Part shown: positions 40,846-64,000 of the stretch, one piece after another
Layout: the number at the start of each line of letters is the position of its first letter
Position numbering within the stretch: position 1 is the stretch's first letter
IMG/VR virus record: IMGVR_UViG_3300017963_000003
Coordinates: 62,001 to 126,000 of that record
DNA from: a virus
Reading direction: 5' to 3' (one strand)
Length of the DNA: 64,000 bases
Translations under genes and position numbers: made by a program
Notes under the pieces: generated by a model
Seen by the model: the letters and a program-made list of their open reading frames with translations, nothing else
What the model was told of the DNA's origin: nothing
Databases searched by the model: none

Positions 40846-41253
40846 TCAGTACTCCAGCTCCATGATGTCCTCGATGTCGTTGATGACCTGGGCCGCACCT
40901 TCCAGCGGGGTTTCACACCGTTGGATGTCGGAAGCCACGCTCTCCGGAAACTCCTCGATGTACTCCATGATGCGCCGTAGGATCGTGTTGTCCAACCGGG
41001 AACGAAAAATTCCGTACTCGCGCTGGGCGGCCACTGTCATGAAGATCCCGCGTGCGCGTACCTTCCCGTCACGGCCACGGAGCCAACCTTTCCTACGGAG
41101 AGACTCCAGGTGGCAGCTGACTCCGTTGGTCGAGGTAATGCCCATCTCGGCACCGATCTCACGCAGAGAAGGGAAGACGCCGCCGTTCGCTTCGTAAAAG
41201 GACACCATGAAGTCCATGACGTCCTGCTGCCGGGGGCTCAACTTTTCGAGCAT
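40846..41253 (-). CDS. LexA-type winged-helix DNA-binding protein, 135 aa
   Basis: Start at MLEKLSPRQQDVM (ATG 41253), well after a shadow extension. The N-terminal 65 residues are LexA DNA-binding-domain-like (LSPRQQDVMDFMVSFYEANGG... SLREIGAEMGITSTNGVSCHLESLRRKGWL). The C-terminal half is helical and lacks the Ser-Lys protease domain. A likely regulator without self-cleavage. It is next to the ABC ATPase and overlaps the previous gene. Confidence 0.75.
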   Translation of the reverse strand: MLEKLSPRQQDVMDFMVSFYEANGGVFPSLREIGAEMGITSTNGVSCHLESLRRKGWLRGRDGKVRARGIFMTVAAQREYGIFRSRLDNTILRRIMEYIEEFPESVASDIQRCETPLEGAAQVINDIEDIMELEY

Positions 41254-44763: not shown

Positions 44764-44837
44764 CCGGGTGTGGCGCAGTCTGGCAGCGCACTTGATTCGG
44801 GATCAAGGGGTCGGGAGTTCGAATCTCCCCGCCCGGA
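44764..44837 (+). tRNA. tRNA-Pro (CGG)
   Basis: Acceptor CCGGGTG/CGCCCGG, anticodon loop TTCGGGA with CGG, T-loop TTCGAAT, A73. CCA is not encoded. Confidence 0.88.
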
Positions 44838-44854
44838 CAGATGGAGAGAGAACG

Positions 44855-44980
44855 ATGAAACGCAAGAGACGAGAAACAGTCATGCCAACCATCACTCCCG
44901 CCGCCACGGCTCCCCGCCGGTGGTGCCTCTCCTCGTTTACCCAGCTATCCCAACATCTCTATTTGAATTCGAGTCTGTAG
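44855..44980 (+). CDS. Possible plus-strand small basic peptide, 41 aa
   Basis: ATG 44855 follows GGAGAGAGAACG. Lys/Arg-rich start. A similar GAGAACGATGAA segment occurs at 44691, upstream of the first tRNA. It lies between tRNAs, so it may be just spacer. Weak support. Confidence 0.2.
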   Translation: MKRKRRETVMPTITPAATAPRRWCLSSFTQLSQHLYLNSSL

Positions 44981-45004
44981 GCCTAGTTTAGGCCCGCAGA
45001 GCTT

Positions 45005-45091
45005 GGAGTCGTAGCCTCAACGGTAAGGCCCCGCCCCGGAACGGCGTGTGCACGGTCTCCCGTGGTCCAGGTTCGAATCCTGGCGGCTCCG
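45005..45091 (+). tRNA. tRNA-Ser (GGA)
   Basis: Acceptor GGAGTCG/CGGCTCC, long variable arm (CACGG/CCGTG stem), G73. Anticodon loop CCGGAAC gives GGA, but position 33 would be C instead of the universal U, so the anticodon is less certain. Confidence 0.7.
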
Positions 45092-45123
45092 CTCGAATTG
45101 TTGTGAAGGAATAAGCAGCAACG

Positions 45124-45166
45124 CTGTTTGCTGCTCGTAGATCTTTGAAAATTGAGCAGCAAACAG
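45124..45166. repeat. 13-bp inverted repeat 5' of tRNA-Ser(CGA)
   Basis: CTGTTTGCTGCTC and its complement GAGCAGCAAACAG flank AGATCTTTGAAAATT-like sequence. The loop resembles the CTTTGAAAA segments of bacterial rRNA spacers. Probably a processing stem. Confidence 0.65.
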
Positions 45167-45257
45167 GAGGGATGGCTGAAATGGCAATAGCGGCGGTCTC
45201 GAAAATCGCAGCCCACGGCGTCGTACCGTGGTGGGGGTTCGAATCCCTCTCCCTCCT
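45166..45257 (+). tRNA. tRNA-Ser (CGA)
   Basis: Acceptor GGAGGGA/TCCCTCC, anticodon loop CTCGAAA, long variable arm. Position 73 is T, unusual for Ser. No encoded CCA. Confidence 0.82.
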
Positions 45258-45259
45258 CT

Positions 45260-45336
45260 GTGGCCGTAGCTCAAAGTTTGGATAGAGCCCCGGATTGTGG
45301 CTCCGGGGGTTGCGGGTTCGAGTCCCGTCGGTCACT
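45260..45336 (+). tRNA. tRNA-His (GTG)
   Basis: Acceptor GTGGCCG/CGGTCAC, anticodon loop TTGTGGC. Followed by TCCA, so CCA is encoded. No G at -1 in the DNA, and C73 is absent, both unusual for His. Confidence 0.8.
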
Positions 45337-45340
45337 CCAG

Positions 45341-45412
45341 AGGGCTGTAGTTCAGTTGGAAGAACATCGGGATTTGACCCCGACGACCACGGTTCAAGTC
45401 CGTGCAGCCCTT
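45341..45412 (+). tRNA. tRNA-Gln (TTG)
   Basis: Acceptor AGGGCTG/CAGCCCT, anticodon loop ATTTGAC, stem TCGGG/CCCGA. T at the discriminator. Confidence 0.82.
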
Positions 45413-45415
45413 CAG

Positions 45416-45488
45416 GTCTCGGTAGCTGAGTTGGTTCAAGCGCTGGGCTGCAACCCCGGAGACACCCGTTCAAGTCGGGTCCGAGACT
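45416..45488 (+). tRNA. tRNA-Cys (GCA)
   Basis: Acceptor GTCTCGG/CCGAGAC, anticodon loop CTGCAAC, T73 as expected for Cys, followed by encoded CCA. Confidence 0.88.
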
Positions 45489-45492
45489 CCAC

Positions 45493-45577
45493 GGAAGGAT
45501 GGCTGAGAGGTAAAGCAGCGGGTTGCTAACCCGTGGTCGTCCGCCAGGACGCGGAGGTTCGATCCCTCCTCCTTCCG
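45493..45577 (+). tRNA. tRNA-Ser (GCT)
   Basis: Acceptor GGAAGGA/TCCTTCC, anticodon loop TTGCTAA, long variable arm, G73 as expected for Ser. Confidence 0.88.
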
Positions 45578-45582
45578 CAAAC

Positions 45583-45656
45583 GGGTGGGTAGCTTGAACT
45601 GGTAGAGCACCGGACTCCAAATCCGGAAGGTCCAGGTTCGAATCCTGGCTCACCTG
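45583..45656 (+). tRNA. tRNA-Trp (CCA)
   Basis: Anticodon stem CCGGA/TCCGG with loop CTCCAAA, T-arm CCAGG/CCTGG, G73. The first acceptor pair is G-T. Confidence 0.85.
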
Positions 45657-45661
45657 CTGAT

Positions 45662-45737
45662 GCGTCCGTAGGCTAATTGGCAAAGTCGCCTCGCTCAAAA
45701 TGAGGGTCAACTCTCGGTTCGAGTCCGAGCGGACGCA
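45662..45737 (+). tRNA. tRNA-Leu (CAA), short variable loop
   Basis: Acceptor GCGTCCG/CGGACGC, anticodon loop CTCAAAA, A73. The variable region is about 7 nt, not the long class II arm of normal Leu tRNAs. D-arm begins GGCTAATTGGCAAAGTC. Confidence 0.72.
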
Positions 45738-45741
45738 CAAA

Positions 45742-45814
45742 GGACGGATAGCTCAGTTGGTAGAGCGGTGGCTTGTTAAGCCAAGGCGCGGGGGTTCGAG
45801 TCCCTCTCCGTCCG
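45742..45814 (+). tRNA. tRNA-Asn (GTT)
   Basis: Acceptor GGACGGA/TCCGTCC, canonical D-arm GCTCAGTTGGTAGAGC, anticodon loop TTGTTAA, G73. Confidence 0.9.
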
Positions 45815-45819
45815 CAGTT

Positions 45820-45892
45820 GCGCGTGTAGGCCAACGGAAGAGTCGCCAGGTTCAGAACCTGGATGTTGGAGGTTCGAATCCTCTCACGCGCA
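45820..45892 (+). tRNA. tRNA-Leu (CAG), short variable loop
   Basis: Acceptor GCGCGTG/CACGCGC, anticodon loop TTCAGAA, A73, 5-nt variable region. D-arm GGCCAACGGAAGAGTC has only a three-pair stem, as in the other two Leu genes. Confidence 0.72.
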
Positions 45893-45897
45893 CCGTT

Positions 45898-45969
45898 GGG
45901 TAGGTAACTCAGTAGGTAGAGTGCCGGCCTGAAAAGCCGGATGCGGCGGTTCGATTCCGCCCCTGCTCA
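45898..45969 (+). tRNA. tRNA-Phe (GAA)
   Basis: Anticodon stem CCGGC/GCCGG with loop CTGAAAA, D-arm ACTC/GAGT, A73. The acceptor GGGTAGG/CCTGCTC contains two G-T pairs. Confidence 0.85.
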
Positions 45970-45973
45970 CTAT

Positions 45974-46046
45974 GCCCGTGTAGGCCAACGGCAGAGTCGC
46001 TGGATCGAGGGTCCAGAGGTTGGTGGTTCGAATCCACTCACGGGCA
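45974..46046 (+). tRNA. tRNA-Leu (GAG), short variable loop
   Basis: Acceptor GCCCGTG/CACGGGC, anticodon loop TCGAGGG (C at position 33), A73, 5-nt variable region. Same D-arm as Leu(CAG), so the pair is probably a duplication. Confidence 0.68.
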
Positions 46047-46050
46047 TTCT

Positions 46051-46137
46051 GGGAGCCGTCATAAGGCAGGCTGGGCCTACGGAGCGCTGTAAACGCTCTC
46101 CTCCACGAGGCACGTGGTTCGATTCCACCGGCTCCCA
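46051..46137 (+). tRNA. tRNA-Tyr (GTA)
   Basis: Acceptor GGGAGCC/GGCTCCC, anticodon loop CTGTAAA, long variable arm, A73. Last gene of the plus-strand cluster. Confidence 0.88.
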
Positions 46138-46144
46138 CCGCACG

Positions 46145-61230: not shown

Positions 61231-61584
61231 CTACTCCCCCTTCAGCGACTGGTCGTCCTCAGTCCCGAGGATGACATCCAGATCGTCCCAGACAATCGCC
61301 TGGAGCGGCCCCCTGTTCAGCTCCGCCCACTTCCTCACCTCGGATAGCCTTGAGCGCACCTCGGTCACCTCGCGCTCGGCTGCGGAAAGCTTGTCCCGCG
61401 TTTCGCCATGCCACTTGACCTCATAGCCGTGGTCGCGCTTCCACCCGTCCCGCTCGCGCAGCGCGTCTCTATACCATGGTGACTTTTTGACGCACTCCTC
61501 GCATACGTAGTCGTTGTGCTTCCCAAACAGCTTGCTGTCGTCGTGCGGATATGTTTTGCAGATCGCGCAGTATTTATCGCTCAT
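61231..61584 (-). CDS. Zinc-knuckle and coiled-coil protein, 117 aa
   Basis: Begins CAICKTYPHDD... YVCEEC (zinc), then a coiled coil (LSAAEREVTEVRSRLSEVRKWAE) of the Ea22-like type. Member of a paralogous set at 59758, 60485, 61574. Confidence 0.6.
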   Translation of the reverse strand: MSDKYCAICKTYPHDDSKLFGKHNDYVCEECVKKSPWYRDALRERDGWKRDHGYEVKWHGETRDKLSAAEREVTEVRSRLSEVRKWAELNRGPLQAIVWDDLDVILGTEDDQSLKGE

Positions 61585-61903
61585 CGTCTTGCTCCTCGGG
61601 CGCGGGGGTGGTGAGGATGCAGCCTAATTCTAACCAATCTTGTTGTGTCAAGCCCCCGTAAACCAGTGGGCTGCGTTTCTTCTTCCACTCCCTCACCGCC
61701 TCCAGCTTCGCCTCTGCTCTCTCGGTGCGCGCGCGGAGTCGTACATTTTCGTCAAACATCCTGGTGTAGTCGTCCTCCCAGCACTCGCACGAATAGGCCA
61801 GGTCATCGCATGCTTCCCGTGCCTCGTCTCGCTCGCGCTCGGCTTTTAAGGCACGTTCGCGCATAGTGTCCAACGCATCTTCTTTTGTCACATGGTATGA
61901 CAT
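61574..61903 (-). CDS. Internal-start coiled-coil protein, 109 aa
   Basis: The strong AGGAGGACTGAGATG junction at 61903 marks a likely independent translation start in the same frame as the longer ORF. C-terminal half carries AEAKLEAVREWKKKR of the Ea22-like family. Confidence 0.55.
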   Translation of the reverse strand: MSYHVTKEDALDTMRERALKAERERDEAREACDDLAYSCECWEDDYTRMFDENVRLRARTERAEAKLEAVREWKKKRSPLVYGGLTQQDWLELGCILTTPAPEEQDDER

Positions 61904-62209
61904 CTCAGTCCTCCTCGGGCACGTCGAGCGCAAGAAATGCAACTGCCCAATCTCCCGGTCCCGCTCCTCGATCACGCGCGCATCAGCAGCCCTCACTGCT
62001 GCCACGGCATCGGCCAGAGACAGGTGCTCGTGATCGCGCCCGATACTCTCGGAGTATACGCGAGCTATCTCCCGGTCCCGCTCCTCTACGGCAGCGAGGG
62101 CGCGGAGTATGTCTTCATTCGTCCACTCGCAACAATCGTCTGGCTCCTCTGTAGCGTACTGCCGGTACTCTACGATCTCCTCCGCCGTCAGCGGCTTGTA
62201 TTCAGTCAT
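61574..62209 (-). CDS. Ea22-like modular coiled-coil protein, 211 aa (composite)
   Basis: Open from ATG 62209 (MTEYKPLTAEEIV). It contains an internal ATG at 61903 behind GAGGAGGACTGAG (MSYHVTKEDALDTM...), with Cys-rich and coiled-coil segments after it. A different frame near 61905-61950 ends DWAVAFLALDVPEED followed by TGA, so two genes may have been fused or frame-shifted. The product is at least one early coiled-coil protein. Confidence 0.5.
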   Translation of the reverse strand: MTEYKPLTAEEIVEYRQYATEEPDDCCEWTNEDILRALAAVEERDREIARVYSESIGRDHEHLSLADAVAAVRAADARVIEERDREIGQLHFLRSTCPRRTEMSYHVTKEDALDTMRERALKAERERDEAREACDDLAYSCECWEDDYTRMFDENVRLRARTERAEAKLEAVREWKKKRSPLVYGGLTQQDWLELGCILTTPAPEEQDDER

Positions 62210-62433
62210 CGCGCATCCCCACACTTCCGCATCTCCCGATGCCCCTGCACCCACTCCTGGAGAGTCTTCTCACGGTACTTGCCGTGGTACTGTGCAAACC
62301 ACAGCGCCACCTCTTCTAGAGTGACACGACGTTCGACCTCGGGACCGAGACGAAGCAGCTCTCCCTCAATGGACTCGATGACATCTGCGGGAGCGTTTTC
62401 CGTCATCCACATCAGCGCGTTGCTTAGATCCAT
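62206..62433 (-). CDS. Small hypothetical protein, 75 aa
   Basis: ATG 62433 behind GAGGAGAACCGAG. Helical (NALMWMTENAPADVIESIEGELL). Overlaps neighbours. Unknown. Confidence 0.55.
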   Translation of the reverse strand: MDLSNALMWMTENAPADVIESIEGELLRLGPEVERRVTLEEVALWFAQYHGKYREKTLQEWVQGHREMRKCGDAR

Positions 62434-62695
62434 CTCGGTTCTCCTCGTCTACGGCGACAATCACCCCCACCCACTCATTGGGGTAGTTGAAACGCAGATC
62501 ACGAACGTTTCCAATGAGCACTCCGTCAACTGACGCGCTGCCGTCGTCCTTCCCTGAAAAAGAAATCCCCACCTTGAGTGGACCGTGACTGCGAAAGTCG
62601 TCCCTACTGTGATAGGTGTGACGGTTGGCGTAGGTCACGACAGGCAGCTCGGGGTCCACCTGCCTGAGCACCTCAATCAGTTCCTTGACCTTCAT
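62366..62695 (-). CDS. Small phage protein family, 109 aa
   Basis: Start at MKVKELIEVLRQVDPELPVVTY (ATG 62695) behind GAGGAGGGCTGAG. N-terminal helix plus beta segment of a common phage hypothetical family; related to the gene at 46665. The C-terminal Arg/Lys-rich residues overlap the next gene. Confidence 0.6.
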   Translation of the reverse strand: MKVKELIEVLRQVDPELPVVTYANRHTYHSRDDFRSHGPLKVGISFSGKDDGSASVDGVLIGNVRDLRFNYPNEWVGVIVAVDEENRDGSKQRADVDDGKRSRRCHRVH

Positions 62696-62696
62696 C

Positions 62697-63167
62697 TCAG
62701 CCCTCCTCGCTCGTGGCCAGTGCGTAGACCATCTCGGGCACGGTACACTTCTCCTCCGAAGGCCAAGGCCACTCGGCCTTCTTGAAGCACTCGGGACAGA
62801 TACGATGGCCAGACTGAACACCGTCGGCGGCCTTCGCCATGCGACCACACCTCGAACAAACCCAAAGAGGTCCTCCGAGCAACTTCGACAATCGCTCCAG
62901 GGTATCTTGGTTCAGAACGCTGAAGCGGCTCTCGTGTTCGAGTATATTCTGACGCTCTGTGAGGCCCTGCACCATCCGTTCCAGCGCCCGCCTCTCCTGT
63001 GAGGCCTGCTGGTGCATATCTCGGAGAGTCAGGCAGCGGGCCTGGAGATTGGCAACACTCAGCTTCAAGCCCTCGCGGTCTTTGATCGTCGCGCGCAGCG
63101 CCGCCGACATTGCATCGATCTCATCGAGGATCTCAGCCTTGGTCCGTCTGTCCTTCGCATCACCCAT
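62697..63167 (-). CDS. Coiled-coil protein with zinc ribbon, 156 aa
   Basis: ATG 63167 behind AAGGAGGACTGAG. N-terminal coiled coil (about residues 1-95), then CSRCGR and CPEC knuckles. Unknown early protein. Confidence 0.6.
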   Translation of the reverse strand: MGDAKDRRTKAEILDEIDAMSAALRATIKDREGLKLSVANLQARCLTLRDMHQQASQERRALERMVQGLTERQNILEHESRFSVLNQDTLERLSKLLGGPLWVCSRCGRMAKAADGVQSGHRICPECFKKAEWPWPSEEKCTVPEMVYALATSEEG

Positions 63168-63339: not shown

Positions 63340-64000
63340 GTCGAGACTTCTAAACCGTCTCACAGACATCGAGGGGATCGGCCAGTCGAGACTTCTAAAC
63401 CGTCTCGCAGGTATTGTAAGCTGAGGCGATGAACCGTATTGCCAACACGGCCCGACAGTCGAGACTTCTAAACCGTCTCGCAGGTATTGGAAGCCCGCGA
63501 GAGTGAGCGCGTCTCCAGATGAGGCCAAGACGTCGAGACTTCTAAACCGTCTCGCAGGTATTGGAAGGGCCTCATGGTAGAGGATGTTGTCGGCGCGGTT
63601 GGGGGTCGAGACTTCTAAACCGTCTCGCAGGTATTGTAAGAAGAGCAACGGGCGAAGTGAGGGTACCAAGCACTTTGCGTCGAGACTTCTAAACCGTCTC
63701 GCAGGTATTGGAAGGGCGATCCCGAAAAAGATCGCGGCTTGGCCTCTCAGTCGAGACTTCTAAACCGTCTCGCAGGTATTGTAAGAACTGCGTGTTCGGG
63801 CTCCAGCTCAACCCGGCCTCTCAGTCGAGACTTCTAAACCGTCTCGCAGGTATTGTAAGCTCCGCGCGACGGAAGGGTAACGTCTACATCACCACGTCGA
63901 GACTTCTAAACCGTCTCGCAGGTATTGTAAGAGTGGACTGGCAACCACTCCAACGGAGAGTGGCGTCCGTCGAGACCTCTAAACCGTCTCGCAGGTATTG
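63340..64000. CRISPR. CRISPR array, at least 10 repeats, cut by right edge
   Basis: 36-nt repeats start at 63340, 63385, 63458, 63532, 63605, 63679, 63750, 63824, 63896 and 63969 (plus-strand reading). They contain CGAGAC and GTCTCG separated by nine bases, and end GGTATTG(T/G)AAG. Spacers between repeats 2 and 10 are 35-38 nt and all different. The first copy (63340) is degenerate in its last 14 nt and only 9 nt from the next. Repeat position 33 is T in five copies and G in three. Copy 10 has C at position 9. No cas gene is in the window. Transcript direction is unsettled (see findings). Confidence 0.95.

What the first reader, a model, noticed from the sequence alone, without database searches (positions are those of the whole stretch)
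63340..64000. Phage genome carries a CRISPR array with no cas gene in view
At least ten regular 36-nt repeats with unique 35-38-nt spacers lie next to early phage genes. Phage-borne arrays are rare and usually serve inter-phage competition or host takeover, either with a compact Cas protein or by using host machinery. The array runs off the right edge, so a cas gene could be just outside.
Basis: partly seen in the sequence, partly recalled or inferred. Interest (0 to 1): 0.93.

Follow-up and report, generated by a model that had tools for sequence, protein, structure and literature searches.

The report
Phage CRISPR array with Cas12m effector
A large phage carries an intact-looking CRISPR array, and its partner gene, a small Cas12m protein, lies just outside the window; it probably silences rival phages, which makes it a good but not unprecedented example of a phage that uses CRISPR.

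Summary
The array starts at window 63340 and runs 590 bp past the right edge: 18 copies of a 36-nt repeat, 16 full spacers (15 different). Next to it, on the same strand, is a 642-aa Cas12m, the effector of subtype V-M (PADLOC Cas12u1 E=1.3e-101; solved Cas12m structures by sequence and predicted fold), with a V-M type repeat and no Cas1, Cas2 or Cas4 found. The RuvC triad is D-E-D. The record is a ~192-kb tailed phage. A second record has the same 8.3 kb without mismatch, and a largely colinear phage carries an orthologous locus (Cas12m 52% identical, repeat 32/36) with no shared spacer, so a chimera or fresh capture is unlikely. One spacer matches a gene of this phage at 34/38, as if taken from a relative's homologous gene; the others have no match found. 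Best reading: RNA-guided binding that blocks competing related phages; expression and binding are inferred. Cas12m in virus contigs is in print, so this is a new member of a known kind; notable is inheritance with complete spacer turnover and no acquisition genes.

The parts
63340..63375 (-). leader-distal, degenerate repeat copy (end of the array), followed by a 9-nt spacer remnant to 63384
63385..64000 (-). CRISPR array inside the window: repeat copies 2-10 (the tenth cut) and 8 full spacers; the array goes on beyond the edge to window-equivalent 64590 (L004:1340-2590), 18 copies and 16 full spacers in all
   Evidence: - strand taken as crRNA sense from the direction of cas12m and the shape of plasmid V-M repeats; the hairpin folds on either strand
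64000..64000 (-). MARKER ONLY, the part lies outside the window at window-equivalent 64591-64756 (L004:2591-2756): leader between array and cas12m, with the motif TCTTTGACAA that also stands before the arrays of G011, L103 and Rctr197k
64000..64000 (-). MARKER ONLY, the part lies outside the window at window-equivalent 64757-66685 (L004:2757-4685 = G000:126757-128685): cas12m, 642 aa (P0001), RuvC triad D313-E494-D585, four Cys 556/559/575/578
61231..63167 (-). small ORFs of unknown function to the left of the array (for example 61231-61584, 61574-62254, 62697-63167), not part of the CRISPR system

Best explanation
This is a stand-alone subtype V-M (formerly V-U1) interference system of a ~192-kb tailed phage: cas12m, a leader and an array, in that order on one strand. 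Most likely the array is transcribed leftwards from the leader, Cas12m processes the precursor into crRNAs (repeat hairpin 5', spacer 3') without a tracrRNA, and the complex binds matching double-stranded DNA and blocks transcription or replication rather than cutting it. During infection this would exclude competing, mainly related phages (superinfection exclusion). Shown here: gene identity, repeat architecture, an orthologous locus in a related phage, spacer turnover, absence of known acquisition genes, and one spacer matching a lineage gene. Inferred: expression, processing, binding without cleavage (from relatives tested in print), and the targets.
For: Effector: PADLOC Cas12u1 E=1.3e-101 over residues 2-595; 18 of 18 members of alignment A3, P0001 included, hit it. 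PDB: Cas12m 23vw 3e-66 and MmCas12m2 7.1e-28 by single sequence; the A3 profile gives 2.5e-183 and 2.6e-87. The AlphaFold2 model (pLDDT 83.3, pTM 0.57) matches Cas12m entries first: Foldseek ranks 1-4; VIA-align Z 23.3 over 562 residues, rmsd 6.4, against 16.7 for the best TnpB and 14.4 for the best Cas12f. Repeat: in cas sense a CGAGAC/GTCTCG hairpin next to the spacer, -8.7 kcal/mol, then AC; the stem, G.A pair and C(-1) described for MmCas12m2 (PMC10442227, passages) can be placed on it one base further out, and their protein partners His269-Arg270 align with H261-R262 (my reading; columns invariant in 8 of 8). Plasmid V-M repeats have the same shape. Inheritance: 105 of 237 mechanically chosen ORFs match G011 at E<=1e-6, two of them spurious ORFs in the array, largely in order by eye; Cas12m 52% identical over 637 codons, repeat 32/36, 16 against 10 spacers with none shared and no cross-match above the null. 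Target: spacer 13 matches G000:162475-162512 at 34/38 (next best 24), where 25 shuffled spacers reach at most 0.70 of their length; translated score 64 against a maximum of 46 in 100 shuffles; the gene has a homologue in related phage G008 (45% over 104 aa). No Cas1, Cas2 or Cas4 in G000, G011, G008 or Rctr197k, with positive controls. In print, D-E-D Cas12m orthologues bind dsDNA and do not cut it (PMC11013384, passages and section 37).
Against: A target is suggested for 1 of 15 different spacers only, and its exact source was not found. The array gave no convincing match in 50,697 phage or 72,556 plasmid records at E<=10 (best E 5 and 1). The D-E-D triad would permit cutting, and the nearest plasmid Cas12m aligned here, MsCas12m by my identification, is only 34% identical. 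In PMC11013384 plasmid interference was seen for two of four variants tested, and binding for six of eight (passages); I did not see whether MsCas12m was among them. The hairpin folds nearly as well on the other strand (-7.8), so fold alone does not fix the direction. No transcription data. Mismatch by codon position against G011 (0.36, 0.30, 0.48) is weak evidence of constraint. A 12-nt complement to the repeat lies at G000:130924, longer than in 30 shuffles (8-10), but it is not extended and G011 has none of 10 nt or more in the 10 kb examined.
Confidence: 0.72

Rival explanations
1. Same system, but the D-E-D Cas12m cleaves or nicks the target DNA of rival phages.
For: Canonical triad D313-E494-D585, D-E-D in 27 of 36 virus loci; PMC10442227 (passages) leaves open that D-E-D clades 3 and 4 may cut.
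Against: Eight Cas12m variants, four with D-E-D, showed no dsDNA cleavage in PMC11013384; purified MsCas12m cut neither DNA nor RNA and had no collateral activity (passages and section 37).
Confidence: 0.15
2. Host takeover: the spacers silence host genes (defence, translation, sigma factors) during infection.
For: Reported for other huge phages (PMC7162821, passages); 14 of 15 different spacers have no match found.
Against: The only spacer with a match points to a phage-lineage gene. The host is unknown, so host genomes could not be searched properly.
Confidence: 0.2
3. Counter-defence decoy: the crRNAs or Cas12m interfere with the host's CRISPR rather than with target DNA.
For: Single phage-borne repeats and a phage Cas9 with an inactive RuvC domain are described as such inhibitors (PMC11656645, passages).
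Against: A full array with turned-over, unrelated spacers and an intact effector is not needed for a decoy (inference). Whether a host array has this repeat was not searched.
Confidence: 0.05
4. Assembly chimera or recent capture of host or plasmid DNA.
For: The twin contig ends in an 11-bp tandem repeat about 300 bp upstream of the cas12m start, so the join to the right rests on the window's record alone.
Against: Array, leader, gene and left flank are identical in two records; an orthologous locus in a largely colinear phage; GC of array plus gene 0.587 against 0.586 for the record.
Confidence: 0.03

Closest known systems
Subtype V-M CRISPR-Cas, Cas12m (MmCas12m2 8HHL, GoCas12m 8PM4, MsCas12m)
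   Same: Effector size and fold; hairpin repeat ending in GAC as in plasmid V-M loci; no Cas1 or Cas2; array downstream of the gene
   Different: Carried by a tailed phage rather than a plasmid; D-E-D instead of the H-D-D of Mm and Go; 22-34% identity to the six plasmid-borne relatives aligned
Virus Rctr197k (KX853510), Cas12m-like gene annotated as similar to transposase, with annotated CRISPR
   Same: Phage of similar size with distant terminase and portal relatives; D-E-D Cas12m and array with the TCTTTGACAA leader
   Different: 31% identical effector, other repeat, array in another part of the gene order by eye, and a second array beside another Cas12f/TnpB-like gene
Virus-encoded Cas12m-like proteins from landfills (PMC12607003) and type V-U systems of huge phages (PMC7162821)
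   Same: Phage-borne compact type V effectors beside arrays, nearly all without acquisition genes
   Different: I saw passages only and compared no sequences with theirs; those passages do not report one V-M locus inherited in a phage lineage with full spacer turnover
CasPhi (Cas12j) and CasLambda (Cas12l) of huge phages
   Same: Single compact Cas12 effector beside a phage array (recalled)
   Different: Other Cas12 families: fold Z 10.6-12.4 against 21.2-23.3 for Cas12m entries; those cut DNA (recalled)

Membership tests
Subtype V-M (Cas12m) | Effector belongs to the Cas12m/V-U1 family by sequence over its length | tested here: met
   PADLOC Cas12u1 1.3e-101 over 2-595; PDB Cas12m profile hit 2.5e-183. 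A PADLOC model labelled Cas12f (PDLC01692) also scores 3.8e-95.
Subtype V-M (Cas12m) | Cas12m fold including the helical REC2 insertion that TnpB lacks | tested here: met
   Model aligns over 562 and 553 residues to Go and Mm Cas12m (Z 23.3 and 21.7) but 349 to the best TnpB. A predicted model of medium confidence; REC2 was not examined on its own.
Subtype V-M (Cas12m) | CRISPR array beside the gene with a V-M type hairpin repeat | tested here: met
   25 of 36 virus loci of the family have an array found beside the gene
Subtype V-M (Cas12m) | No Cas1, Cas2, Cas4 | tested here: met
   (Pfam models PF01867, PF09827, PF01930, with controls); record looks near-complete (its ends are neighbours in G011)
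Subtype V-M (Cas12m) | No tracrRNA | tested here: inconclusive
   Longest exact complement to the repeat outside the array is 12 nt (30 shuffled repeats: 8-10), not extended, none of 10 nt or more in the 10 kb of G011; no RNA data
Subtype V-M (Cas12m) | PAM-dependent DNA binding without cleavage | not testable with these tools
   needs protein; one imperfect candidate target, so no PAM can be derived
Subtype V-M (Cas12m) | RuvC triad of one of the described clades (HEK/HQK; HDD; DED/NED; DED/DND/NED) | tested here: met
   D313-E494-D585 aligned with D274-E429-D518 of the Allomeiothermus protein; clades from PMC10442227 passages
Subtype V-F (Cas12f) | Reaches the curated cut-off of NCBIfam's Cas12f model | tested here: not met
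   Cas12f2, the only Cas12f model listed: 14.1 bits against 450. By fold, the best Cas12f has Z 14.4 against 23.3 for Cas12m. Dimerisation and tracrRNA not tested.

The most novel reading that the evidence does not exclude
A vertically inherited phage immune system: lineages of ~190-kb phages keep one cas12m-leader-array locus over deep divergence (effector 52% identical) while every spacer is replaced, with spacers taken from sister phages by host acquisition enzymes working in trans on the phage's leader, and used for nuclease-free superinfection exclusion. A largely phage-borne branch of Cas12m with intact D-E-D sites would have specialised in this.
Probability: 0.35. Interest if true: 0.72.

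Novelty: new member of a known kind. Interest (0 to 1): 0.5.

Why it matters
Phage-borne type V arrays without cas1 or cas2 raise an open question: where do their spacers come from and what do they target? Here are two near-complete, largely colinear phages with orthologous V-M loci, the same leader motif and entirely different spacers; contigs of both bear the number 3300017971, which I take (from recall of IMG naming) to mean one sample. That makes spacer turnover, trans-acquisition and phage-on-phage targeting testable with reads from such samples. The compact D-E-D effector is also a natural test of whether an intact RuvC site in Cas12m cuts.

Tried and rejected
Spacer targets: whole array against phages and plasmids; exact or degenerate cores of spacers 4/14, 13, 15 and 16 in IMG/VR (all four hit only the twin's array; the window's own record is left out there); all 16 spacers against the own genome, the 12 terminase-bearing loci and, as one array query, their 12 records; 15 different W spacers and 10 G011 spacers against four whole phages at DNA and protein level; 248 spacers of 31 arrays against 64 sequences of 1.44 Mb (some arrays were crudely delimited, long spacers cut to 38 nt, five arrays dropped beforehand as duplicates or poor). 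Only spacer 13 stands out; the other pairs listed (E 0.002 to 0.05) are about what 248 queries give by chance. A plasmid hit of spacer 3 (Oceanithermus) was rejected: 29/37 at full length and E=1 in its search, though it looks strong (2e-6) in the small set, into which it had been fetched. Arrays of Rctr197k, G011, L110 and L106 against phages gave nothing I could use (weak hits of L110 and L106, E 1e-3 to 3e-2, were not followed up). A homologue search for the gene matched by spacer 13 found only the twin's array.

Phage-only branch of Cas12m: the tree (39 rows) puts P0001 with L079 (100/100) inside 27 virus rows, but that fork has support 84/32 only, MsCas12m is just outside it, and branches are long, so it is a lead. 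The contrast of 36 virus contigs with 4 genome contigs (1 full length) used partly different patterns and is no fair rate; P0001 alone found 1 and 0. That the other 33 contigs are phages rests on IMG/VR: two Pfam terminase families hit 11 of 31 records given at E<=0.01, 7 of them over the cut-off, and both miss the window phage. Our terminase was found in 2 of 35 of those records (G011, G012).

Host: not identified. Lifestyle (lytic or temperate): not tested. PAM: not derivable from one imperfect target.

Full report
What is there. Repeat copies start at window 63340, 63385, 63458, 63532, 63605, 63679, 63750, 63824, 63896 and 63969. The window is G000:62001-126000 of a 192,260-base virus record, so I read on to the right. 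The array has 18 copies of a 36-nt repeat and ends at window-equivalent 64590. The leftmost copy is degenerate and only 9 nt from the next. There are 16 full spacers of 34-40 nt; numbers 4 and 14 are identical. The different spacers resemble each other no more than shuffled ones.

The gene beyond the edge. After a 166-bp gap lies a 642-aa ORF on the - strand, G000:126757-128685. Pfam gives only the C-terminal TNB domain, 1.3e-11. PADLOC gives Cas12u1 at 1.3e-101 over residues 2-595, and a model labelled Cas12f at 3.8e-95. The PDB search gives Cas12m entries first, and so does the predicted model by fold. V-U1 is the former name of V-M (PMC11013384 and PMC10442227, passages). The RuvC residues are D313, E494 and D585 and the four zinc-ribbon Cys are present. 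D313 aligns with D274 of the Allomeiothermus silvanus plasmid protein; PMC11013384 mutated D274 of its Meiothermus silvanus MsCas12m (passage), so I take the two to be the same protein.

Direction and guide. In the sense of the cas gene the repeat reads CTTACAATACCTGCGAGACGGTTTAGAAGTCTCGAC and folds into one hairpin next to the spacer, -8.7 kcal/mol; the other strand folds nearly as well, -7.8. The direction therefore rests on the cas gene and on plasmid V-M repeats beside the Allomeiothermus, Methylomonas and Pelobacter genes, which have the same shape in cas sense (of six plasmid loci given, three showed a repeat family). The contacts described for MmCas12m2, a G.A pair, C(-1) and His269-Arg270, have counterparts here (H261-R262), with the 5' side of the stem one base further out; this is my reading. 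The degenerate copy at the far end fits a leader on the cas side. The leader motif TCTTTGACAA occurs between gene and array in 6 of 24 gaps examined, which are 4 distinct loci: W, G011, L103 and Rctr197k.

It is a phage. Portal (2e-66) and terminase (3.9e-47), collagen-like tail fibres, DNA polymerase, helicase and an SbcC-like protein are hit in PHROGs; of 20 proteins given in two calls, 8 had a hit. There are 14 tRNA genes in the window. The record's two ends are neighbours in G011 (gene 190877-191911 at G011 115.5-116.5 kb, gene 328-1428 at 117.2-118.3 kb), so I infer a near-complete, circularly permuted genome; no completeness estimate was given for it.

Not a chimera, not new to the lineage. 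Record 3300017971_000213 carries the same 8284 bp with no mismatch. Scanning with the terminase gave 12 loci. Of these 12 records, G001 is the twin, G011 and G012 carry a Cas12m relative and an array, and G008 (212 kb) has only weak C-terminal TnpB-like hits and no array by my detector; the other 8 are fragments of under 16 kb with no Cas12m hit, one of them (G002) with a terminase 100% identical to ours. G011 and G012 are identical over the 10 kb compared. G011 is largely colinear with W by eye, with a rearranged part around G000:106-111 kb; its Cas12m is 52% identical, and its repeat differs at 4 of 36 positions (my comparison). None of its 10 spacers is shared.

Targets. Only spacer 13 has a match beyond the null: 34/38 to G000:162475-162512 in a 126-aa ORF on the - strand, with mismatches at positions 2, 31, 32 and 33 (the null is one shuffle per spacer and genome). 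In the gene's own frame the spacer reads LVTQVRDGAFCKL against LVVQVRDGAFCKL (my translation). The ORF has a 45% homologue in G008 and a partial one in G011, and no Pfam family. The natural explanation is a spacer taken from the same gene in a related phage; the mismatch at position 2 and the flank TTCCGC, unlike the TTN of MmCas12m2, may spare the phage's own copy. An old self-derived spacer that has since diverged is not excluded. A degenerate search for that gene stretch in IMG/VR found only the twin's array.

How common. An alignment-based scan found Cas12m relatives in 36 virus contigs, the twin included. An array of at least three copies lies beside the gene in 25 of 36 (the quality of the repeat calls varies), and the triad is D-E-D in 27 of 36 (one of the other nine is a fragment lacking the first residue). 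Rctr197k, whose Cas12m is annotated as similar to transposase, has two annotated arrays. So the kind is known and not very rare among large virus contigs.

Literature. PMC12607003 (passages): 24 virus-encoded proteins placed with Cas12m in landfills, no acquisition genes in the phages of the highlighted effectors. PMC11656645 (passages): V-M strongly enriched in plasmids and encoded by some prophages. PMC7162821 (passages): type V-U variants in huge phages, almost all phage systems without acquisition genes, some spacers against other phages and some against hosts. PMC11013384 (passages and section 37): eight Cas12m, four with D-E-D, none cut dsDNA; six of eight showed PAM-dependent binding; plasmid interference in two of four tested. 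PMC12669027 (passages): V-M interference by binding. Searches for 'Cas12m' with 'phage' (29 papers, 25 listed), with nuclease and RuvC terms (15 papers) and with DED (10 papers, 8 listed) showed me no report, in the listings or the passages read, of a V-M locus followed across a phage lineage; only open-licence papers are held, and the Wu 2022 paper on Cas12m was not read.

Verdict. A new member of a known kind, well supported, with an unusually clean comparison pair. Binding without cutting is inferred from relatives.

Noticed in passing
G000:128988-129053 (window-equivalent 66988-67053): An 11-bp tandem repeat (CCATCAAGTAC, about six copies) upstream of cas12m, where the twin contig breaks off.
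   Followed up: partly
window 44764-46139, + strand: A run of 14 tRNA genes (ARAGORN; Rfam lists 13) on the strand opposite to most of the long ORFs.
   Followed up: no
L004 6747-6792 and 7931-7976: A 46-bp sequence repeated at 98% identity right of cas12m; it may be a repeated regulatory site.
   Followed up: no
L017:19281-19535 (KX853510:119281-119535): Second, short CRISPR array of Virus Rctr197k beside a 467-aa protein with a weak Cas12f/TnpB domain (1.6e-5, just under the Pfam cut-off), unlike its Cas12m array.
   Followed up: partly
L004:1641-1678 and L004:2369-2406: One 38-nt spacer occurs twice, ten units apart, without duplication of its neighbours: local gene conversion or two acquisitions.
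   Followed up: no
repeat copies, window 63385-64000 and beyond: Most repeats end (+ strand) in TTGTAAG or TTGGAAG; in cas sense the first reads TTACAATA, with a -10-like TACAAT, and a promoter-like site overlaps the first repeat (1 found, 0.9 expected).
   Followed up: no
G008 97132-97527, 188447-188782, 40922-41221: The related phage without Cas12m has three TnpB-like hits (401, 384 and 454-aa frames).
   Followed up: no
G000:192123-192260 and record start: A short sequence repeat at the record's end whose 22-nt unit also begins the record; it probably stopped the assembly there.
   Followed up: partly
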